Origin: Adineta ricciae
Lineage: Eukaryota > Rotifera > Eurotatoria > Adinetida > Adinetidae
Reading direction: 5' to 3'
NCBI GenBank assembly: GCA_905250025.1
Contig: CAJNOJ010000197.1
Coordinates: 81,824 to 145,823 of the forward strand
Length of the DNA stretch: 64,000 bases
The notes beneath the pieces were generated by a model. The model saw nothing but the letters and a program-made list of their open reading frames with translations. It was not told the origin of the DNA and made no database searches. The position numbers and the translations under genes are program-made. Shown in pieces: positions 3,480-56,073 of the stretch. The stretch's first letter is position 1; each line of letters begins with the position of its first letter.

Positions 3480-6400
3480 CTAACAATGAAACAGGATTCC
3501 GACATAATTTGCGCCATTGAGTGCATCATTGTTCGCCGTAACTATGTCAGGTTTGTTGTCATTATTCAAATCAGCAATAGCAACCGAATATGGATAATTA
3601 CCAGCCGAGTAACTGATTCTAGGATTAAACGTGCCATTCCCTTTACTGAGAAAAACACCAATAGCGGGTATACCAGTCTCCCCTGTGATTATATCAGGTT
3701 TGCTGTCACTGTTTATATCGAACACAGTAATTGAGCGGGGATAAGAACCAACTGAGTAACTGAGTTGAGAATAAAATGTACCATTACCGATATTCACAAG
3801 AACACTAATAGTGCCTGTCCCATAGTTAGCCGTAATGATATCAGGTTTGTTATCATCATTTACATCGGACACAGCAATTGAGCGGGGATAAGAACCAGTT
3901 GAGTAAGTAATTTGAGAAGAAAATGTACCATTGCCTTTATTGAGAAGAATACTAACAGTATTTGCATCATTATTGGCCGTAATTATATCAGGCTTGTTGT
4001 CACTGTTCACATCGACAACCGCAACTGAATATGACCCGTTGCCAGTTGGGTAATTAATTTGAGAAGAAAAAGTAGCATTACCTGTATTGAGAAGAATACT
4101 AACAGTGTTTGAAGCATAGTTTGCTGTAATTATATCAGGTTGATTGTCATTATTTACATCAACCACAGCAACTGATCGTGGAAAGGAGTCAGTCGAATAA
4201 TTATTTCGAATAGAAAATATGCCATTGCCCGTATTAATAAGAATACTAACAGTATTTGAAGCATAGTTTGCTACAATTATATCAGGCTTATTGTCATTGT
4301 TTACATCAACAACCGCTGCTGAAAACGAACCATTGCTAATTGAGTAATTATTTTGAGAATAAAATGTAGCATTGCCTGCATTGAAAAGAACACTAATAGT
4401 ATTCGCATCATTGTTCGCTGTAACTATATCAGGTTTATTGTCATTGTTCACATCAATAATTACTACTGATTGTGGACTGCTTCCAGTTGCGTACATAATT
4501 TGAGACGAAAAACTTCCATTTTTTATATTAAAAAGAACATTAACAGTGGCTGTTCCATAATTAACCGTAATTATATCAGGTTGATTGTCGTTGTTTACAT
4601 CAGCAATCGCAACTGATGATGGGCTGCTGCTAGTTGCATAATTAATTGGAAACGCAAATATACCATTTCCAATATTCAAAAGAACACTAACAGTGCTTAC
4701 AGCATAGTTAACCGTCACTATATCAGGTTTGTTGTCGTTGTTTACATCAACAACTGCAACTGAGTATGGACGAGTACCAGTTGAGTAAGCAATTTGAGAA
4801 TAGAACGTACCGTTACCCATATTGAGAAGAACACTAACAGTATTTGCACCACCATTAGCCGTAATTATATCAGGCTTGTTGTCATTGTTGACATCGACAG
4901 CCGCAACTGAGTACGTACTGGGACCAGCTGAGTAAGTAATTGGTGAAGCAAATATACCATTACCCGTATTCCGAAGAATACTAACAGTGCCTGTACCAAA
5001 GTTAGCCGTAATTATATCAGATTTGTTGTCATTGTTTACATCAACAACTGCAACTGAGTATGGAAGATTGCCAGTTGTATAATTACTTTGAGGAGAGAAT
5101 GTACCATTACCATTATTGAGAAGAACGCTAATAGTGCTTGTGCCGACGTTTGTCGTAATTATATCAGGTTGATTGTCATTGTTAACGTCTGCGAGAGCCA
5201 CTGAGTATGGATAATTACCGACTGGGTAAGTTATTGGAGAAGCAAATGAGCCATTTCCGATATTCAGAAGAACAGTAACTGTATTTTCACCTGAATTGGC
5301 CGTAACTATATCAGACTTATTGTCACCGTTTGTATCGGCCGTAGCAACTGTCTGAGGACTTTTACCAGTTGGATAAATAACTTGAGAAGAAAACGTACCG
5401 TTGCCGCGATTGAGAAGAACACTGGTAGTATTTGTAGTGTAACTTGCTGTAACTATATCAGGTTTGTTGTCACCATTCAGATCTGTAACTGATATTGTGA
5501 GCGGAGAGTAGCCAACAGAGTAACTAGGTCGATTGTAATACATGCTATTGCATTCTGTTAGAAACAAATGAAACGGGTTACTTATGTAGTTGAAAGTTTT
5601 TGGAATATTTCGCACTTAATCGAAGAAGGATATTAGCTGAAATAGTATAATTGATTATATTCGAGTCATATTTGACAAGACTTATTAGATTTTATTTCTT
5701 TTCAGAAGTCACAAGCATTAAGTTCGCAAATTTGTAAAATCTTCGACAAATGTCAACAAAAACTTTCATAAAGTTCTTTAAATGATATGCGAAACCATTC
5801 ATATTTCTATAATACTGTAGCTTTTACTCTCAACAGAACGTGTGTAATTGTTAGAAAAAGATTATAGGTATAAAAAGTTTGAACTGGTAAATGATGAGTA
5901 AATTCAAGTGACTGCCTCGTGATACCTGATTGTGAAGATCATCAGTGTGCAAAGAAGTGTTTTCTTCGGCATTTTTATAGATTTTCAAGAAAATTTGGAT
6001 AGAACTATAGAATTTATAACAAAGGTCGCTAGTACCTTTCTAATTTAGTAACACTGGTATAGCTATTTCTTCCGTAAATGTTTTTGAAGTAATGTAGTGA
6101 CATATTTTTCAATATGTAGAAAGAAGCATCTATTCATTCTTTTACGTACCATCAGGTATTAGTGTTATCGACGTTGTTGTTGTTGTTGTTGTCGACGTAG
6201 TTGGTGCGACTGTTGTTGATGTAGTAATCGAGTCTATATTTTGTTCAAAAAAAAGTTCAAATGAAAGAATAGAAGTGACAGGCTTTTTTAAAACTTTTTC
6301 TTCAATCTACCAAGAGTATATCTAGTTCATCATAGTCTTTATCTTTACCTCATTATTATTCAGATACTCATATATGTAAAAGAAAGCACACGCACCACAA

Positions 6401-10924: not shown

Positions 10925-13117
10925 ATGAACAACGAGATGGTTAACGAACAACAAAGCGAAGAAACTACAATTACGTTTCTCTTCGAACCGATTACAAACG
11001 AAAATAATGCGAACGCAATTGACGGGCATTCAACTTCCGATGATGAATCAAATAGCTCCGATGAGGAAAGTTTGCCTTCTTCTACATCTAACTTTCAACT
11101 TCCAATCAGCGAAGATTTCGTTGAAGAATCGATTGATTCAACCACTGAAGATCATTCAACATCTTCTTTAAGCTTCACGGCAAATCGTGATGACGTTCTC
11201 AAGCGAACTCAAATGTCAGTCGAACACGCCATGATTAACAATGCCTATGAAAATGAAATTCAATATGTAAAAGACACTTTGGAGTTCAATATTCTTCTTA
11301 TGGGCGCACCACGAATCGGTAAGAGTCAATTGACCAATGCTCTGACCGGAAATAAAATACATAAAGCACAAACGAGCTCAAGCTTGGAATCGTGTACCCA
11401 AAGACTCCAGAGATACGAAGTGACATGTGGATCATCGAATGATTCTTCAAATGAACAATCGAAAGTTTTTATCTGGGATACTAAAGGCATTGAAAATTGG
11501 TCAGACGATAACGTTGTACGAGAATTGATTCATGTTATTGAAACAATTCATCCGATTGCTGTGATTTACTGTGCTGCACCAGGTACTTTCGCAAAATTAC
11601 ATCAAGTGGAAATTATTCTTAACTATTGTATGTACAAAAGCATCTTCTGTGCAGCAGTCATAACAAATATGTGGTCAGGTAAGTTGTGAAACTTTCTTCG
11701 AACAAATTTAGAATATTTTATGCGATTAGGTACACGAGAAGCTCGATTGTCTGTTCAAAATGATTTAGAAAAGATTCTCGAACGATTTGGTCCTCGGAAA
11801 ATTCTCGAATTTGATACAAATGATCCCATTCTTCGTAAACATGAAGTGATTATGTATGGCGATAAAGCTCTATGTACCATGGTGAACAGCACACCATTTG
11901 TTAATTTGGATTTATCATCAGTTGAAAAACCCGTTCGTGGAATTGATGAATTAACATATTGCATCATGCAATCATTAGCAGAAGACAAAGTGCGAGGCTG
12001 GTGTCAGGCTGTTCTGGGTAATCGAAGCTTTTGGCAAAAGATTCGACATCAGACATATGGCTTTGTATTGGAAAAATATTCGCAATTACCTATAATTGCA
12101 GAGAAACTTCAACACGGTTTAGAGACCATGTTTTCGGATGTTTTAAATACTTTGAACACTTTATTTCTTTGAGTTGAAGTTTTTTTTCATATAACATATA
12201 CGAGTTTTCATTGTAGATGGAAAGATGTTTTACAATAACCGTATGTGGAGCAAGTCGAGTAGGAAAAAGTACATTAATCAATGCAATCGTTGGTAAAGAA
12301 GTGGCACAAACCAGTGATAGTTTGAATTCAAACACGACAACACTCAAAGAATACGTTATAGAAAAACAAAGAGATGAAAATGATCCTCGTTCGAATTATA
12401 CATTGAAATTTTGGGATACACCAGGAATTGAATCATGGACAGAAGAAGGTGTTCAAGAGTATTTTGCGGCATTGATGCAAAGAACAATGCCAGTTTGTAT
12501 TATCTATTGTATTTCACCTTCATCGTTTGCTGATTTGGGACGAGTCAAATGGTTTGTCGAACAATGTATGACAAGAAATATATTCGTTGCATTGGTTTGT
12601 ACGAATATGTATTCGGGAAATCGACGTTCACAGATTATGGAACAATTTACTAAATTGTTAATCAGTATTAATCCAAATTTTGTACGATGGAAACAAGAAA
12701 ATATTGAATATTTCGAAAACAAAGCTTTATGTACAATGGTAAATAGTAAACAATACATTGATGAAGATTTCGGAATTAGTAAAGATCCATCAGGCGTTAA
12801 TGAACTGATTGTTGGAATTGCACAATGTTTAAGTGGTGAACAACAATTGTTTTGGCTCCAAGCAGTTGCAGGAAATCAAAACTTTTGGTCAAGAATGGGT
12901 TCATATGTCAATTCAGCTTTTCGAATACCTTCCGACACTTTATCGAGTGTTACTAATCGAGCATCAACTGTTGCCAGATACTTTCTCTCATGGTGTCCAT
13001 CAACAAATAGTGTAGTTGAAGTTTGTTCATTTTGTAGAAGATTTTAATTATCATTAATATTTGCTTTTTCTTCAATTTTAGAATGAATCTCGATCGAATC
13101 GCAAGAGGAAATTGTAG
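10925..13117 (+). CDS. protein with two related P-loop GTPase domains
   Basis: Four exons: 10925-11678, 11730-12139, 12217-13020 and 13082-13117. The frame closes to 667 residues. The N-terminal 90 residues are acidic and Ser-rich (disordered). Domain 1 has GAPRIGKS (residues 127-134, P-loop), WDTKGIENW (DxxG) and TNMWSG. Domain 2 has GASRVGKS (399-406), WDTPGIESW and TNMYSG. Each domain is followed by KALCTMVNS and a QAVxGNxxFW block, so the halves arose by internal duplication. The fold is TRAFAC/AIG1-like; the usual G4 NKxD is replaced by TNMxSG. No membrane span is seen. The third intron (12140-12216, donor gttttaaa) and the last (13021-13081) are inferred: without the former the protein would end at 12172, and without the latter at 13047. 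Related plant and vertebrate AIG1/GIMAP GTPases act in immunity; a role here is inference. Confidence 0.8.
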
Positions 13118-18424: not shown

Positions 18425-21013
18425 TCATTGAATGGCAGAATTCGATCTTTGTTTTGCTTGAAGCGCCTTATTGAAATATTTCTGTGCTTCTGACTTGTCA
18501 CCCATTTTTTCGTACACTAAACTGATCTTATTGTAGATTTCACCTATATGAAAATCATTCGGTGACACAGATTTTTCTTCGATTTCAAGTGCTTTATTGT
18601 AGTTTTCCAGAGCTCTTGAATGTTCACCCATTTTCATATAGACTTCACCAATGTTTTTATAAGTTGTGGGGAAATTCGGATGAATAGACGGTGAATTCTT
18701 GCGTAGAACTTCCAGTGCCTTATCGAAGTATTCAAGTGCGCTGGAATACTCACCCATATGAGAATATACAGCAGCGATGTTGTTATAACTCGTGGCCAGA
18801 TTGACGTGACTGAATGGTAAAGATTTGCGAAAAATTTCAAGAACTTTATTATAATTTTCCAAAGCTCTTGAATATTCACCCATATGAGTACAAGCTAAAC
18901 CCATGTTGTTGTACACTGCGGCTAGATGGGGATGAGCTACGTGTAGCGTCTTCGCGTAAATCTCAAGTGCTCTGGCGTAGTTTTCGACAGCGCTTGAGTA
19001 TTCACCCATGTCGTAATATACTAAACCGATGTTGTTGTAACTCGTGGCGAACTCGATATGAGTCGACGGCAGTGTTTTCCGATGAATTTCGAGAGCTTTG
19101 TTGTAATTTTCCAGAGCATCATCGTGTTTTCCCATATCATAATATACTGCACCTATATTGTTGTAGTTAATCGCTAAACTTGGATGTGTAGATGGCAGAA
19201 CTTTGCGTTGAATTTCAAGCGCTTTGTTGTAACTTTCGAGAGCCTGTATGTGCTGACCCATTTCAGAATATACTGAACCTATACTATTGTAACTTCTAGC
19301 TAAATCTGGATGGGTCGGCGGCAACACCTTTTGGTAAATTTTCAGCGCCTTGTTGTGATTCTCCAGAGCTCTGAGATGATTCCCCATACGAGAATACACT
19401 ACACCTATTCTGTCGTAACTTCCAGCTAAATCTGGATGAGTCGATGGAAAGGCTTTCTTTTGTATTTCAAGTGCTTTCTTGTGATTTTCAAGAGCTCTTG
19501 ATTGATCGCCCATGTCAGAATACAGTGAACCTATGTTGTGGAAGCTCGTTGCGAAATTCGGATGACCCAATGGTAATACCTTTCGATAAATTTCAAGCGC
19601 CTTGTTGTAGTTCTTAAGAGCTCTGGAATACTCGCCCATATCAGAGTACACTGAACCTATATTGTTCCTGCTGGTGGCTAAAGCGGAATGAATGGACGGA
19701 AAAGTTTTCTGAATAATTTCAAGTGCCTTATAATAGTTTTTGAGAGCTCTTGAATGATCACCCATGCGAAGATATATAGAAGCGATATTGTTATAGCTCG
19801 CTGATATATCAGAATGAGTCGGTGGCAAAGTCTTCCGATATATTTGAAGTGCTTTGTTATAAGTTTGAAGAGCTCTTGAATAATTTCCCATATAAGAATA
19901 AACACCTGCGATGTTATTAAGAGTCCTTCCTAAGTCGGGATGATTGGGAGATAAATATCGTTGTTGAATTTCTAATGCTTTGTTGCAATTTTCAAGAGCC
20001 TTCGAGTATTCGCCCATATCTAAATACGATAAACCCATACTACTGTAAGTTAAGGCAAGATTAGGTTGACTAAACGATATCGATTTGGCATAAATCTCAA
20101 GTGTTTTGTTGTAGTTCTCGAGAGCTCTTGAATTGTGACCCATATGCGAATATACAGAACCTATATTTGTATAAATCATGGCTAAATGGGGATGAATTGG
20201 CGACAACGTCTCTTGATAGATTTTCAGTGCTTTGTTATAGTTTTCAAGAGCTCGTGATTCTTCTCCCATATAGAAATACGCTAAACCAATGTTATTATAG
20301 CTTTTGGCTAAATCTGAGTGAACCGGTAACTTTTGCAGAATATGAAGAGCCTTGTTAAAGTTTTCAAGAGCTCTTGAATATTCACCAATATCGATATACA
20401 CTGAACCAAAGTCATTATAAGTTGTAGATAAATCTGGATGAATTGATGATAATGTTTTTTGTTGAATATCAAATGCAATGTTATGATAATGAAGAGCATT
20501 TGAGTATTGACCCATATCACGATATATTGATCCGATATCGTTATATGTTTTGGCTAAATCTGGATGATTTTGGGAGAAGAGTTTTGTTTGAATGACAATC
20601 GCTTTTTCATAATTTTCAAGAGCTTTTGAATATTCCGTAGCCATGTGATGATTTTGACCAATATTGATAAGTTTTGTAACTAAATTTACGTAGAAAAAAA
20701 AAGAAATGATATCGATGTGAAATTATACACTGTTTAGTTAAAATCAGAGAATGAAAAGTTATTCAAAACTTTATGTTCAAATGAAATGATTTTCTACTAT
20801 TTTTGTATTTGATTTGATTTCTTTGTTGATTAAAAGTGAGAAAATCTGACCTTGTTGAAATTTAGAATTTCTTTGAATAAAATTCCATAATCGAATAAGA
20901 ACAAATGGAAAAGTAAGAACAGTAAAAATAATGAAAATGAATAGACAAATATTTAATGATCTTTTAGTTTTGAAATAAAATAAATGAAAATTGTTTTTCT
21001 TCTCATTTGACAT
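18425..21013 (-). CDS. membrane-anchored 18-TPR protein (kinesin light chain-like repeats)
   Basis: Two exons, 20851-21013 and 18425-20679. The 171-nt intron is phase 1 (donor GTCAG, acceptor TTTAG), and the frame closes to 805 residues. Exon 1 encodes a basic N-terminus and one membrane span (about residues 20-42), a type II signal anchor. Exon 2 encodes 18 tetratricopeptide repeats of 42 residues, consensus YNNIGxVYxxMGEYSRALENYNKALEIxxKxLPxxHPDLA. That spacing is the TPR_12 type found in kinesin light chains and in many bdelloid proteins. It should form a long superhelical protein-binding scaffold on the lumenal or extracellular side. No catalytic domain is attached, unlike the ART-TPR relic at 58.4-60.3 kb. 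The ATG at 20644 would also open the frame, but TPR-like sequence continues upstream of it and the exon 1 phase fits, so I prefer 21013. Confidence 0.85.
18430..20640 (-). repeat. 18 tandem 126-bp TPR-coding units
   Basis: Direct repeats of 126 bp. The plus-strand core resembles ttgttgtagttttccagagc. The units diverge at silent sites but keep the reading frame and length almost exactly, which fits repeated unequal exchange under selection for the protein. Confidence 0.85.
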
Positions 21014-26534: not shown

Positions 26535-28044
26535 TCAATGATCACATTGACAGACATGCCGAATAAAGCTGTCAATGTGATTGTTTTGAAGACATATGAT
26601 ATGTTCATCATCATTCTCCTCGTTAATATCAACGAGATCTTCAGTACATGTCGCATGTGGATAAACATACCAACGATGACGATGGAGAATATTTTGAGAT
26701 TTATGACGCAATAATTGGTCATAATCTTCGCAAATATTTCCATTATAATGCCAATCTGTACATTTTCCACAATAAGAACATGCTGGACCTCCACAACTTC
26801 TCGTGGATTTCTGTCCACGTTGGAGGAAACTGTTCAACATATCAGTTGTGATCATATCTAAATGAAAAGAAAAAAAGAAATTAGTTTTCTTTTTGTGTAA
26901 ATTAATCTTACTTGATTGTTTTGGTCGAGTTGGAATAAACTAAAAGAGAAATATTTGATTTGATTTGAATATTGTAATCGAAGAAAAACAAAGGCACATA
27001 CAAATTGATTTATAGTTGTCATAAATCGTTTGAGAAATCGTTGAACAGTATTTGTTCTTTGTTGTTGAGGAACTAAAGTTTCGAAGAGTTTTTCATTCTC
27101 CTACAAATTTGTTTTTCTTTAGTAAAATCAATTGAAAATATTCCAACATACTATTTGTTCATTCTTTTCAGCTTCTTCATCACTTGGCATTCGATTTTTA
27201 CTTTTATCTAAAAGTAAAGATTTACATTTGATAAAATATCAAGAAGAAGATTTTCTCAAAATTTACCCAAAATCAATTGTTTTAATTCATTCGGGAAGAT
27301 TCGTAAATGTAAATAACGACCAAGTGGTTCAACCTCTTCCAACAGAATTAGTCGGAGGTCGCGTTCTACGTATATTTCTGAAAGTACTTTAAAATATGTC
27401 CCAGGAAAGATGAGAACTTCGTTCTCATGTGGATAATTCGAATAATTTCGAATGTTTTTTCCCCAAATATTTCTAATAGCAAATAATGTTCGTTCACCAT
27501 TAGTTCCCAGAAATGTCTCTGAACATGAAACATCAACTGAATACGTAGTTGACGAAAATGCCCACCAAGCGATCACTTCATCCTTCTTATAATTTCCATT
27601 GAAGTTCATTTTCACACCACGAAAAAGAACTTGACGATTATCTGAAGGAATACGACAAAGTCCAAGAAGAAAAAGTTTTAAATATGCGAACCATGGTCTA
27701 AGATGTTCGCGACTCTTTGTTCGAAGTGTTTTATTAAGAAGATAATATAAACAAGTGTTTGTGGGATTCCATGACATCGTATATAAATATATCGATGCCG
27801 ATTCATCCTTTGTAAGTCCATCATTCGGGAAATTTAAGCACATTTCTTTGGCAAAATGTGCTCGATCGATAATATTCGGGATGAAACGAACGAGAGGTTC
27901 AACAGCAATTTCTAATGAAACTACTGGAATATGTTCAAATTCTTCTCCATTGAGAAGAGGAAGACGAATCGCTAAAGATCCATTGTTCGTATTCTCAATT
28001 TCTGCATTATAATTCGCAGAAAGTCTTTCATTTCCATTAGCCAT
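26535..28044 (-). CDS. arginine-type ADP-ribosyltransferase with Cys-rich C-terminus
   Basis: Five exons: 27267-28044, 27152-27207, 27002-27100, 26912-26939 and 26535-26857. The introns are 51-60 nt and GT-AG. The product is 427 residues. The catalytic domain carries the R-S-E signature of R-specific mono-ADP-ribosyltransferases: Arg142 in VLFRGVK, FSST (163-166) and the active ExE in HENEVLIFPG (Glu207-x-Glu209). The second Glu would be the catalytic residue that transfers ADP-ribose from NAD+ to arginine. Exons 2-4 form a polar linker. Exon 5 encodes a separate Cys/His-rich module (SCGGPACSYCGKCTDWHYNG, and more Cys/His to the end), which may bind zinc. There is no signal peptide, so the protein is probably intracellular. 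No TPRs are attached, unlike the relic at 58.4-60.3 kb. The substrate is unknown. Confidence 0.88.
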
Positions 28045-30885: not shown

Positions 30886-31926
30886 TTAAATTTTTCTTAA
30901 AATGACATATGTTTGACAACATTTAAGTTGAAATCGTTCCGGATTTAATTTAACTTGATCATAATAATAATTCCAAAATCGATCCGTTAACTGAATAATT
31001 TCGTCATTTGATCGTTTTTTAGTAAATTGCAAAGTTTGTTGTAAAATCGATTGAGTTGCACTTCGCATAACACCCATTTGAACTTTCGCAAACGTATCTA
31101 AAGTTAATTCTTTCTTCATTAATTGATCGTAAAACTTAAAATCTACACACGATGTTGTCGAATCAATTAATTCAAATGAATATTTCGTAAATAATTTCGT
31201 ATCAACACATTCATCATATGAACGAATGTAAACAGGAATTGTATATTCATCTAATTCTTCTTTTGTCAATGAACAATGTCGTGCGCATTCATATAGAAGT
31301 TCGTAAACACTTTCAGTCATCGTTAAATTATTTTCATTAAGACAATTAATGACTAAAATAAGAATTCCATTTTTCATTAATTCAATTGAGCGATGTTTTA
31401 AAAAGTTTTCATAATCAATTTTCGATTGATTTCGAAAAAGCTCAAGTTCTTTGCCTTGTGCGTATACCGATATACAATGATTTGATATATTACAAGGTTT
31501 TCGTGAAAGCCAATGGATTGAAGCGGATGAAAACCCGATTGTTAATGAATTTGGTTGAAGACAAGCTTCGTAAAACGAACGACCATTTGCCAATGCATGA
31601 TATGGTTGATCTTGTTGATTAATTAAATCAAACAATTGTTTCCAATCGTTCGTTGGTAAATCATTATGAATAAAAAGAAAAGATTTGTTCCAATTTTGAA
31701 TTTCCTTAATGAAATTCGCAATGATTTTCATTATATGAATGGAATTTGCTCCATGTGAAGATCCAAAATCTGCTAAAACTAAGGAAGACAATGAGAAATC
31801 GATTTGCAATTTCTCAATTGCCTTTTTAATCAATGGAATTGCTGATTCGATCAATGCTAGTTGAGGTGAAGAATTGTTATTATAAGAACCAATCATACCT
31901 AACGTTGCACCGGTGTTCGTCGTCAT
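30886..31926 (-). CDS. SABATH-family SAM-dependent carboxyl methyltransferase
   Basis: A single exon of 346 residues, close to the usual SABATH length of 350-380. SABATH (Methyltransf_7) enzymes methylate small carboxylic acids such as salicylate, jasmonate and indole acetate. Matching motifs are LADFGSSHGANS (51-62, SAM-binding, compare ADLGCSSGPNT of plant members), HNDLPTNDW (87-95), SFYEACLQPNSL (117-128) and GFSSASIHWLS (131-141, compare SSYSLHWLS). The family is mainly plant with bacterial, fungal and protist members and is not typical of animals, so horizontal transfer is likely in a bdelloid. The missing introns fit that origin, while base composition matches the neighbours. A TATA box lies 39 nt upstream. 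The substrate cannot be predicted. Confidence 0.9.
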   Translation of the reverse strand: MTTNTGATLGMIGSYNNNSSPQLALIESAIPLIKKAIEKLQIDFSLSSLVLADFGSSHGANSIHIMKIIANFIKEIQNWNKSFLFIHNDLPTNDWKQLFDLINQQDQPYHALANGRSFYEACLQPNSLTIGFSSASIHWLSRKPCNISNHCISVYAQGKELELFRNQSKIDYENFLKHRSIELMKNGILILVINCLNENNLTMTESVYELLYECARHCSLTKEELDEYTIPVYIRSYDECVDTKLFTKYSFELIDSTTSCVDFKFYDQLMKKELTLDTFAKVQMGVMRSATQSILQQTLQFTKKRSNDEIIQLTDRFWNYYYDQVKLNPERFQLKCCQTYVILRKI

Positions 31927-53970: not shown

Positions 53971-55503
53971 TTATACTGGTTCTGTGTACTCGGTGGATCT
54001 TTTCTTTAAAATTGTCAAATTAATAAAACCTTCATTTCGTTCTGCTGTAAATCTCTCTTCAATTGCTTGTTGAAATGAAATATTTAATTTAAATGATCCA
54101 GTCGGAATATCCGATTGATGAATAATCGGATTATTCATTGATGTATTCAAATCACGTCGTATATTTTCAATTGTAATCGAATTTCCTGAAATTCTTGGCT
54201 TTAAAACTCCTTTTTCAAATCCAGGTAGTTCAAGAACTAAAAGATATTTCGTCTCATCTTCATATAAATTATATCTCGGTTGCCAATATTCACTTTCATT
54301 ACGAATGAAATATCCAGCATCATCATATATAAGTTGTTCAGATAATTTTAATTCATATGGTCTTTGAGAAAGATCTTCATAATCTCGTCGATTACTAAGA
54401 ACGATAAATGGTTTCGAATTGTGTTGTACTAATTGTAAATTCGGTGTTTGTTCAGTTGAATTTTGAACAAATAATTTTGATAATTTATGATTTATGAAAG
54501 TAATCATGTCATTGATAAGATCCAAATTACGTTTATTATCCGTATTTTGGAGGAAATTCATGATGCCATCAATAGTTTGCATATTCCATAGTTTATCAGC
54601 TTCGGAACCTGATCTTCCTAAAATGTAATGTCGAATATCAGTTCCACCGAATTGTTTTGAAGTAAAATAGATAATATCTTTCATACATCCGTTGATGGAT
54701 AGTTGTGTTTTTTGTTGAACTGCACCGAAAATCCATTGAATTTCTTCGGAAATGATCTTATCAACATCAGGAATTTTTTCCACATCTAACAAATTGTGAA
54801 CGATTATAATAGTCTTCTTATGAGGCGAATTTCGATAGTATTTCAAGATTTGATTGATGTAAATCTGATCCGTTGTTCGTAGTCGATTGACAACAATGAT
54901 GATAAAAGTTGAGAGATGAAGAACAACTTCTCGTAAAAGCGCTTCTCGCGCTCTTTTATATTCGATCTCATCATTTCTTACTGGAGTGTCCGTTCCAGCA
55001 GTATCCAAAAATACAATATTTGTATAATTTTGACGTCCGGCGGTGATAGAAATGCCCTCCGTATGAACTAAAGTTCCCGTTGGAAGAGAAACATTGCAGA
55101 GTTGATTAAGGAGAAACGATTTTCCTCGGTTGTACGCACCGAGAACACTTACAACAACACCTTCTTTCTGTTCATTTATCACCGATGCACCATTTTCACC
55201 AGTACCTTTCGTCGTCGATTTGATGGATTTCGTATGTTGACCTAATAAGATTTCCCATCCATGAGTTCGTAAATCTAGTAGATTGTTTATTCGAACGACA
55301 ATGTCATATGGTGATGCTGTAGTTCGATATTTATTTGAGGCTGCGTCATTTTCATTTTCACCATAAAGTTCCAAACCAGAAAGAATAGCCGATAAGGTTT
55401 TGTTGCTGATTTCAGGAGTTTTTTCACTTACAGACAATGAATTTTCAGAGGAACGAGGGGTACCACTTTTAATGAAAAACCGACCGTGATTGCCTCTACT
55501 CAT
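53971..55503 (-). CDS. GTPase fused to an Hsp20/alpha-crystallin domain
   Basis: A single-exon 510-residue protein. The in-frame ATG at 55602 would add 33 residues, but a TATA box lies at 55541-55548, so I start at 55503. Residues 1-60 are polar and disordered. The G domain has VLGAYNRGKSFLLNQL (P-loop GAYNRGKS 122-129), FLDTAGTDTP (DTAG 167-170), VVNRLRTTDQ, and IIIVHNLLD (N237 to D240, in the place of NKxD). The RGKSFLLN form resembles guanylate-binding/atlastin-type and dynamin-like GTPases. Residues 407-501 read YWQPRYNLYEDETKYLLVLELPGFEKG and on to FINLTILKKR; this is the strand pattern of an Hsp20 domain, with PGF and IPTGSFKLNISF typical of small heat-shock proteins. I know of no common family with this pairing. 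It suggests a GTP-driven factor that binds misfolded or foreign protein. Confidence 0.85.
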   Translation of the reverse strand: MSRGNHGRFFIKSGTPRSSENSLSVSEKTPEISNKTLSAILSGLELYGENENDAASNKYRTTASPYDIVVRINNLLDLRTHGWEILLGQHTKSIKSTTKGTGENGASVINEQKEGVVVSVLGAYNRGKSFLLNQLCNVSLPTGTLVHTEGISITAGRQNYTNIVFLDTAGTDTPVRNDEIEYKRAREALLREVVLHLSTFIIIVVNRLRTTDQIYINQILKYYRNSPHKKTIIIVHNLLDVEKIPDVDKIISEEIQWIFGAVQQKTQLSINGCMKDIIYFTSKQFGGTDIRHYILGRSGSEADKLWNMQTIDGIMNFLQNTDNKRNLDLINDMITFINHKLSKLFVQNSTEQTPNLQLVQHNSKPFIVLSNRRDYEDLSQRPYELKLSEQLIYDDAGYFIRNESEYWQPRYNLYEDETKYLLVLELPGFEKGVLKPRISGNSITIENIRRDLNTSMNNPIIHQSDIPTGSFKLNISFQQAIEERFTAERNEGFINLTILKKRSTEYTEPV

Positions 55504-55776
55504 TTTGCTTCTGTATATTATAACCGAAGAAAGTAATATGCTTATATACACAGATTTGTTCTCAGCGTTATCTGTGTTTTTGTATAGATAACAGTCGGAC
55601 ATGACTTTTTAAGGTCTTCAAAGTAAAGTCACCAACTCATTCTAAAATTGGGTATTTTATCATTTACTTCTGCGCTCAGTATTTATGAATTTAGTTTCTT
55701 GGTTAACGAATAAGCGAGTTTATTGAAGAAAGAAAAAAACCAGTGTATTTCTATTTCTGAAATCAAATCGAAAGAT
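55504..55776. other. GTPase-Hsp20 promoter and copy B 3' flank
   Basis: Contains TATATAAG at 55541-55548 for the GTPase-Hsp20 gene and, from 55686, the duplicated block. Confidence 0.6.
55541..55548 (-). promoter_or_regulatory. TATA box of the GTPase-Hsp20 gene
   Basis: TATATAAG on the minus strand, 37 nt before the ATG at 55503. Supports that start over the in-frame ATG at 55602, which lies upstream of it. Confidence 0.55.
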
Positions 55777-56073
55777 TTATTTTCGACATCGTTTTCCTTC
55801 TTTACACGATGTACAAACACCACCAAAGAAACATTTGTTTCCAACAGTTGCACAAGGTAATCCCGAACATGAAGGTAAAATTGAACAATCACATTTATGA
55901 TTTGTACATATTCCACCATTTAAACATCGATTTCCATTGGTCAAACACGGAAGATTACATGTTGAAAGAAAACGTTTTTCACGATGATCCATCGACATTG
56001 ATTTCTCATCACATCGAATCATTGTTGAACAAAATATAAGAAAGACGAAGAAGAGGATGAGTTGTTTGATCAT
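55777..56073 (-). CDS. secreted 12-cysteine peptide precursor, copy B
   Basis: A 98-residue paralogue of the gene at 51883 with the same signal peptide, REKR processing site and twelve Cys. It differs by three bases in the CDS. Two change the protein (Leu2 to Ile; Thr26 to Met), both outside the predicted mature peptide. One is silent (a Gly codon before KRCRK). The mature peptides are therefore identical. Promoter and upstream flank are also conserved, so both copies are probably expressed together. The pair brackets the GTPase-Hsp20 gene on the same strand. Confidence 0.85.
   Translation of the reverse strand: MIKQLILFFVFLIFCSTMIRCDEKSMSMDHREKRFLSTCNLPCLTNGNRCLNGGICTNHKCDCSILPSCSGLPCATVGNKCFFGGVCTSCKEGKRCRK

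What the first reader, a model, noticed from the sequence alone, without database searches (positions are those of the whole stretch)
53971..55503. GTPase fused to an Hsp20 (alpha-crystallin) domain
One exon encodes a P-loop GTPase (GAYNRGKS, DTAG, HNLLD) followed by a clear small-heat-shock-protein domain. GBP/dynamin-like GTPases act on membranes or pathogens, and Hsp20 domains hold unfolded proteins. The pairing suggests a GTP-regulated holdase or a defence GTPase that recognises aggregates. The GTPase and Hsp20 calls are seen in the sequence; the joint function is inference.
Basis: partly seen in the sequence, partly recalled or inferred. Interest (0 to 1): 0.8.

Follow-up and report, generated by a model that had tools for sequence, protein, structure and literature searches.

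The report
GTPase joined to a small heat-shock domain
This animal genome (said to be a bdelloid rotifer) carries a small gene family in which a molecular switch (a GTPase) is built into the same protein as a chaperone domain that normally works without any energy source, which makes a GTP-controlled chaperone a testable idea.

Summary
The minus-strand frame 53971-55503 (510 aa) has a GTPase domain (Pfam GBP and MMR_HSR1, both 4e-8) and a C-terminal alpha-crystallin/Hsp20 domain. The Hsp20 call is borderline on the window copy alone (17.8 bits, cut-off 20.8) but clear in the C235 paralogue (6.4e-11). It is not a chance join: four uninterrupted copies (window, C164 twice, C235) keep the order, a spliced, more diverged copy (C272) appears to, and GTPase, linker and Hsp20 part are under purifying selection. 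The fused Hsp20 domain resembles prokaryote/plant-type sHSPs. Two bacterial Hsp20 queries found fused copies as their best matches in the whole genome, and no close non-fused sister was found. The GTPase is GBP/VLIG-like, but the usual GBP P-loop arginine is asparagine and there is no room for a GBP stalk. Scans of prokaryote and viral contigs found no fused relative; plasmids and phages gave only Hsp20-part matches; other eukaryotes could not be searched. Ten paper searches listed no description of the architecture. Most likely function: a GTP-controlled assembly switch presenting an Hsp20 client-binding arm. That is inference; stress holdase versus immune GTPase is undecided.

The parts
53971..55503 (-). 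Whole coding frame, 510 aa plus stop, GTPase + alpha-crystallin domain
   Evidence: paralogues, alignment
54454..55311 (-). GTPase region, residues 65-350 (my boundaries, from conservation): P-loop 55117-55140, switch Thr148 55060-55062, DTAG 54994-55005, HNLLD 54784-54798
   Evidence: Pfam GBP/MMR_HSR1 at 112-237; invariant columns
54298..54453 (-). Linker, residues 351-402 (my boundaries)
   Evidence: alignment of paralogues and dN/dS
53989..54297 (-). Alpha-crystallin/Hsp20 domain, residues 403-505, with WQP near its start and AERNEGFINLTILKK near its end
   Evidence: alignment with prokaryote and host domains
55504..55602 (-). Possible N-terminal extension (33 codons) if the upstream ATG at 55602 is used; also open in the C1007 copy (93 of 99 bases alike)

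Best explanation
The gene is a member of a small family of two-domain proteins: a GBP/VLIG-like GTPase with an alpha-crystallin (Hsp20) domain where a GBP would have its helical stalk. Most likely working: binding of GTP makes the GTPase domains pair or assemble, as in the GBP/atlastin/dynamin group. This brings the attached Hsp20 domains, which by themselves pair and bind exposed hydrophobic protein, together into a multivalent binder; hydrolysis or GDP release loosens it. The cargo would be unfolded or aggregated protein, from stress or from a microbe. Shown here: both domains, one frame, a conserved paralogous family, purifying selection on GTPase, linker and Hsp20 part, an Hsp20 type unlike the other host domains examined. 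Inferred: GTP-driven assembly, client binding, and the coupling of the two. The missing C-terminal I-x-I motif in the window copy suggests that the GTPase, not the Hsp20 tail, drives assembly (inference).
For: Both domains found by independent methods. Same order in C164a, C164b and C235 without stops and, with a sub-threshold Hsp20 match (15.7 bits), in C272, whose two exons are parted by a GT-AG intron of about 80 bases. Residues invariant across six aligned members include G122, G127, K128, T148, DTAG 167-170, H236 and N237. C164a against C164b: dS 0.16 / dN 0.04 in the GTPase, 0.13 / 0.04 in the linker, 0.16 / 0.03 in the Hsp20 domain. WxP start, xGF and DG-F/L-x-(I/F/L) sHSP signatures kept. 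A bacterial Hsp20 (L082) finds three places in the whole genome at E<=10, all fused-family: C235 5.9e-9, the window 1.4e-5, C312 4.6e-4. No C-terminal I-x-I in the window copy.
Against: No biochemical, expression or usable structural evidence. Single-sequence AlphaFold failed for the full protein (pLDDT 33.6) and gave a weak model of the Hsp20 part (55.7; Foldseek TM about 0.3). The GBP/atlastin P-loop arginine position is Asn125, so stimulated hydrolysis of the GBP kind is doubtful. The G4 motif is HNLLD instead of N/TKxD, and HNYFN in C272/C337, so nucleotide specificity is untested. C272's Hsp20 match is below cut-off and C337 has none. The Hsp20 domain might be only a dimerisation module.
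Confidence: 0.35

Rival explanations
1. Cell-autonomous immune GTPase. A VLIG/GBP-like GTPase is aimed by its Hsp20 domain at foreign or aggregated protein on invaders; duplication and decay of copies reflect an arms race.
For: Among the fetched loci, the GTPase profile's best non-family match is a GVIN/URGCP-like protein on C552 (3.9e-8), itself Pfam URGCP_GTPase 2.3e-27; GBPs are the best PDB matches for the GTPase part. Several decayed copies lie in the genome (C1007, C225, fragments on C197).
Against: dN/dS is below 1 in each unsaturated comparison, the first 64 residues being loosest at 0.40-0.66; pairwise averages cannot exclude a few sites under diversifying selection. No room for a GBP-size stalk and no recognised lipid anchor at the C terminus. 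No induction data. PADLOC gave nothing for the window copy at E<=1.
Confidence: 0.25
2. Housekeeping GTPase in which the Hsp20 domain is only a structural pairing module. The protein acts as a regulated scaffold without chaperone activity.
For: Window against C235, the Hsp20 part is more diverged than the GTPase (dN 0.65 and 0.43). The window copy scores only around the Pfam cut-off and has no C-terminal I-x-I. C272 is below cut-off and C337 gives no HSP20 match.
Against: Between C164a and C164b the Hsp20 part is at least as constrained as the GTPase (dN 0.03 and 0.04); sHSP signatures persist in the window, C164, C235 and C312 copies.
Confidence: 0.25
3. Artefact: two neighbouring genes read as one, or a recent accidental fusion.
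For: The window copy's own Hsp20 score is weak.
Against: Same architecture in the window, C164 (two copies, 57% and 55% identical) and C235 (46%), and probably in C272 (28%), which is spliced; linker conserved.
Confidence: 0.02

Closest known systems
Guanylate-binding proteins (GBP; Pfam PF02263)
   Same: G domain matches over cut-off; the G1-G3 stretch aligns with GBP5, including T-x-G at the switch threonine.
   Different: Asn in place of the P-loop Arg; DTAG for DTEG; HNLLD G4; no room for the helical middle/GED region; Hsp20 domain instead.
VLIG/GVIN/URGCP large GTPases (Pfam PF25683)
   Same: Best non-family match to the family profile among the fetched loci (C552, 3.9e-8); VHNLLD resembles VHTRVD of the C552 protein.
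   Different: Window copy scores 14.7 bits against a cut-off of 55; about 510 aa, while the C552 frame is over 1,200; carries Hsp20.
Small heat-shock proteins (alpha-crystallin/Hsp20; PF00011), prokaryote/plant type, e.g. HspA (6ewn, recalled as cyanobacterial) and the plasmid Hsp20 next to lon of Phenylobacterium (L082)
   Same: WxPxxxLxE start, (L/A)xG(F/V), longer mid loop with I.H/HH..(I/L)P.G.F, conserved G near the end; best tblastn hit 1e-7 with the C235 part, 2e-3 with the window protein.
   Different: Fused behind a GTPase; own short N-terminal arm absent; no I-x-I tail in the window copy.
Other Hsp20 domains of the same genome
   Same: Same domain family.
   Different: The 14 compared lack the longer mid loop and fall on the other side of a 100/98 branch, although a fused + host grouping is not rejected (p 0.316).

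Membership tests
GBP (guanylate-binding proteins) | Pfam GBP G domain over cut-off | tested here: met
   Window 33.2 bits, cut-off 21.1; 6 of 6 members of A2 match at E<=1, but C272 (14.8) and C337 (18.2) are below cut-off
GBP (guanylate-binding proteins) | P-loop arginine finger (GLYRTGKS; its role is recalled, alignment) | tested here: not met
   Asn125 at that place; Asn in all 7 copies that have the P-loop in the alignment of 8
GBP (guanylate-binding proteins) | Long helical middle and effector (GED) domains (recalled) | tested here: not met
   Residues 241-402, 162 in all, lie between G4 and the Hsp20 domain, and must hold the rest of the G domain too
GBP (guanylate-binding proteins) | GTP-dependent dimerisation and hydrolysis to GDP/GMP | not testable with these tools
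   needs protein
Dynamin | Pfam Dynamin_N over cut-off plus stalk | tested here: not met
   Window 23.7 bits, cut-off 27, although C235 reaches 27.9; no room for a stalk
URGCP/VLIG GTPases | Pfam URGCP_GTPase over cut-off | tested here: not met
   14.7 bits, cut-off 55
Small heat-shock proteins (alpha-crystallin domain) | HSP20 domain over curated cut-off | tested here: inconclusive
   Window 17.8 bits or 21.7, cut-off 20.8; C235 42.7, C312 27.4, C164a 22.1 over it; C272 15.7 below; C337 no match
Small heat-shock proteins (alpha-crystallin domain) | C-terminal I-x-I/V motif | tested here: not met
   Absent in the last 15 residues of the window copy and C164a; loose I/V/L-x-I/V/L matches in C164b, C235, C272 and C337
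Small heat-shock proteins (alpha-crystallin domain) | Energy-independent holdase activity, large oligomers | not testable with these tools
   needs protein

The most novel reading that the evidence does not exclude
A GTP-clocked small heat-shock protein: the first sHSP whose capture and release of clients is driven by a built-in nucleotide switch, evolved in a stress-proof animal by joining a prokaryote-like Hsp20 domain to an immune-type GTPase, with a cytosolic branch and a branch bearing a secretory leader-like N terminus.
Probability: 0.2. Interest if true: 0.85.

Novelty: new variant of a known kind. Interest (0 to 1): 0.5.

Why it matters
sHSPs are regarded as energy-independent holdases (textbook knowledge). 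A conserved family that hard-wires one to a GTPase would be either the first nucleotide-regulated sHSP or an immune GTPase with a misfolded-protein sensor. Both can be tested with one purified protein, and, if the host is a bdelloid, in an animal known for surviving desiccation.

Tried and rejected
Gene-join artefact: rejected by paralogues with the same order. Transfer of the whole gene from prokaryotes or viruses: scans of genome contigs found no relative; they are seeded by short peptide patterns and can miss distant kin. Viral contigs gave nothing and then one locus, L081, an MnmE-type tRNA-modification GTPase beside phage-like genes (naming from recalled features), a generic G-domain match. 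The whole window protein by tblastn matched 2 plasmid and 2 phage records at E<=0.01, all 4 in the Hsp20 part only. PADLOC at E<=1 gave nothing for the window copy and a stray SspC match for C235.

Horizontal origin of the Hsp20 domain: loop and signatures are of prokaryote/plant type, but the tree does not decide it. 35 rows: 7 fused, 14 prokaryote or phage, 14 host. Host rows separate from the other 21 at 100/98. Not rejected by AU tests: fused + host (p 0.316), fused + the five rows resembling the lon-linked bacterial Hsp20 (p 0.313), and the seven fused rows as one clade (p 0.365), which the best tree does not show. The prokaryote rows were chosen by similarity to the C235 domain or to L082, so they are biased. 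Of 85 HSP20 places in the host (six belong to the fused family), 30 were cut out and 14 used; the other 16 were near-copies, held stops, or were the fused C235 itself (L046). The 55 not cut out were not read. Whole-genome searches with two bacterial Hsp20 proteins cover part of that gap: L082 found 3 places, all fused; L083 found 8, of which C235 (1.2e-7) and the window (0.013) lead, and 3 are not of the fused family (C306 0.037, C83 0.049, C166 0.79). Among PDB matches of the fused domain, metazoan sHSPs are not wholly absent: 'Stress-induced protein 1' (4ye0, recalled as C. elegans) at 0.35 and 7pe3 (organism not known to me) at 0.012 and 0.0009.

Structure: full-length single-sequence fold useless. 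The Hsp20-only fold was weak; Foldseek showed 50 of 113 matches, 48 of them sHSP entries and 2 Sgt1 CS-domain entries, none at E<=0.001, TM about 0.3, which I do not count as evidence. The telomere-repeat scan did not identify the organism; its control reads the same repeat and is uninformative.

Papers: ten searches. Three held no paper; 9, 87 and 88 held 1, 4 and 3, all listed; searches matched 429, 121, 834 and 1,355 papers, of which only 20, 15, 15 and 10 were listed. No listed title or abstract start describes a GTPase-Hsp20 fusion. Passages only were seen of PMC12220480 and PMC4835503; a term search of PMC11258130 found nothing. The library lacks most subscription papers, and no eukaryote-wide sequence collection was on hand.

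Full report
WHAT IS THERE. The frame 53971-55503 lies on the minus strand and encodes 510 aa from the ATG at 55503; an upstream in-frame ATG at 55602 would add 33 residues. Pfam finds GBP (4.1e-8, residues 112-172) and MMR_HSR1 (4.3e-8, 118-237) over cut-off, Dynamin_N below cut-off, and HSP20 at 415-504 with 17.8 bits, below the cut-off of 20.8. The six-frame genome search gives the same place 21.7 bits. NCBIfam's archaeal Hsp14 model matches at 5.7e-7, far below its own equivalog cut-off. PDB phmmer finds GBP5 (0.0064) and an Entamoeba histolytica Hsp20 (6l6m, 0.013) in the two halves.

A FAMILY, NOT AN ACCIDENT. The window lies in an unnamed 130-Mb genome of 1,033 contigs. A search of it gives 21 matching places down to E 10, the weakest of them generic or chance. 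Intact one-frame copies with both domains: window, C164 (two, 57% and 55%) and C235 (46%). C272 carries a GTPase exon and an exon ending in an Hsp20-like part (15.7 bits, below cut-off) parted by a GT-AG intron of about 80 bases. C397 ends at its contig edge inside the GTPase; C312 has the second half of the GTPase region plus an HSP20 domain over cut-off (27.4 bits). Broken or partial: C1007 (95.8% alike over 1,424 aligned bases, with four gaps against the window copy), C225, a second C312 piece, C337 (one in-frame TAA before its Hsp20-like end, which gives no Pfam HSP20 match) and fragments on C197. In C235 HSP20 is unmistakable (6.4e-11). A profile of six members hits HspA (6ewn) at 5.6e-11 and GBP5 at 1.1e-7 among PDB chains.

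SELECTION. Between C164a and C164b, dS and dN are 0.16 and 0.04 over 290 GTPase codons, 0.13 and 0.04 over 52 linker codons, and 0.16 and 0.03 over 104 Hsp20 codons (my own Nei-Gojobori script). Window against C164a in the Hsp20 part: dS 1.06, dN 0.35; the GTPase part is saturated at synonymous sites in that pair. The first 64 residues are loosest (ratios 0.40-0.66 where computable). GTPase, linker and Hsp20 part are all constrained, so the protein is kept as one piece.

THE GTPASE. Invariant across the six aligned members are G122, Y124, N125, G127, K128, T148, G150, D167-G170, N206, D212, Q213, H236 and N237, among others. The residue facing the GBP P-loop arginine is asparagine in the 7 of 8 aligned copies that have the P-loop. 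G4 is HN(L/F)xD, but HNYFN in C272 and C337. With a profile of the family's GTPase part, searched against frames of 60 aa or more from all loci held then, the best match outside the family is a GVIN/URGCP-like protein on C552 (3.9e-8); next come the MnmE-type L081 (1.4e-4) and C338 (0.0013); no other non-family locus reached E 1. Spliced loci were searched in pieces, which handicaps them. C552 is URGCP_GTPase 2.3e-27. Against a firm GBP label: of the five members with a whole G domain scanned singly, the generic MMR_HSR1 model beats GBP in four and ties with it in the window copy, and NCBIfam lists HydF and Era. I call it a GBP/VLIG-like G domain without the GBP arginine and without room for a stalk.

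THE HSP20 DOMAIN. A genome search with residues 402-510 found 7 places at E<=10, all in the fused family. A bacterial Hsp20 of the lon-linked kind (L082) found 3 places, all fused (C235 5.9e-9, window 1.4e-5, C312 4.6e-4). A cyanobacterial one (L083) found 8, led by C235 (1.2e-7) and the window (0.013), with three non-fused places at 0.037, 0.049 and 0.79. Both were picked as hits of the C235 domain, so this is not independent. 85 HSP20 places exist in the genome; the 14 non-fused ones aligned lack the longer mid loop that the window, C164, C235 and C312 domains share with prokaryote domains; 55 places were not read. As a control, one host sHSP (L023) hits HSPB1 (1.3e-7) and alpha-B crystallin (6e-6) in the PDB, behind 2bol and 7pe3. 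No HSPB or alpha-crystallin chain appears among the 45 and 25 matches or the 60 shown of 75; the Hsp20-type chains there are mainly bacterial, archaeal, plant and fungal sHSPs (organisms partly recalled). The closest bacterial form found with the C235 part is a plasmid Hsp20 next to lon in Phenylobacterium (tblastn 1e-7), and a second of this type also precedes lon. The tree separates host domains from fused + prokaryote domains (100/98), but does not reject a fused + host grouping (p 0.316) and does not settle ancestry. C272 and C337 are the most diverged. C272 has a hydrophobic leader-like N terminus (19-residue mean hydropathy 2.2); C235 (1.5) and C337 (1.5) have weaker ones, the window and C164 copies none. 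C337 ends in DDEL behind its in-frame stop, so its status is doubtful.

HOW IT MAY WORK. Shown: two domains in one conserved protein. From family knowledge (recalled): GBP/atlastin-type G domains pair on GTP binding, and alpha-crystallin domains pair and bind exposed hydrophobic segments. Inferred: GTP-driven clustering of Hsp20 arms. The window copy lacks the I-x-I tail with which sHSPs usually assemble, which leaves assembly to the GTPase. Whether the cargo is the cell's own damaged protein or an invader's is open; I put the immune rival and the scaffold rival at about 0.25 each.

NOVELTY. No relative in genome contigs and only a generic G-domain match in viral contigs. tblastn of the whole window protein against plasmids and phages matched 2 and 2 records, in the Hsp20 part only. 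The C235 C-terminal part matched 36 plasmid records (25 listed; the 18 with an annotated gene under the match are Hsp20) and 2 phage records, none covering 80% of it. Ten full-text searches listed no description of the architecture. Other eukaryotes were not searchable, so similar uncharacterised fusions may exist in databases. I rate it a new variant of a known kind: known domains, in a conserved combination that I found no description of.

Noticed in passing
window 30886-31926 (-): Methyltransf_7 (SAM-dependent carboxyl methyltransferase, the plant SABATH kind by recall), 346 aa, Pfam 1.1e-34; a candidate foreign gene in an animal.
   Followed up: no
window 10925-11689 (+) and 12217-13047 (+); L011 and L018 on the same contig: Small GTPases (Pfam MMR_HSR1). 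Frames of 310 aa resembling the second one by eye occur in L011 and L018, the same 3-kb stretches that hold decayed fragments matching the fused GTPase, which suggests shared segmental duplication.
   Followed up: partly
window 55777-56073 (-): 98-aa cysteine-rich peptide with a leader-like N terminus beside the fused gene; a near copy sits beside the broken C1007 copy too. No Pfam match at 0.001.
   Followed up: no
window 27256-28044 (-): NAD:arginine ADP-ribosyltransferase (Pfam ART 1.3e-15).
   Followed up: no
window 3480-5615 (-) and 18425-20644 (-): Long one-frame repeat proteins: FG-GAP repeats (711 aa) and TPR/NPHP3-like repeats (739 aa) with visible DNA tandem repeats.
   Followed up: no
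L017 (G000:C337) 1072-2876: Diverged fused-family member with a leader-like N terminus, an in-frame TAA before the Hsp20-like part, and a DDEL end behind it: a possible ER-type form that is decaying, or a sequence error.
   Followed up: partly
G000:C164:113357-113422: TGTGGG array about 1.3 kb upstream of the C164a fused gene, inside the contig.
   Followed up: no
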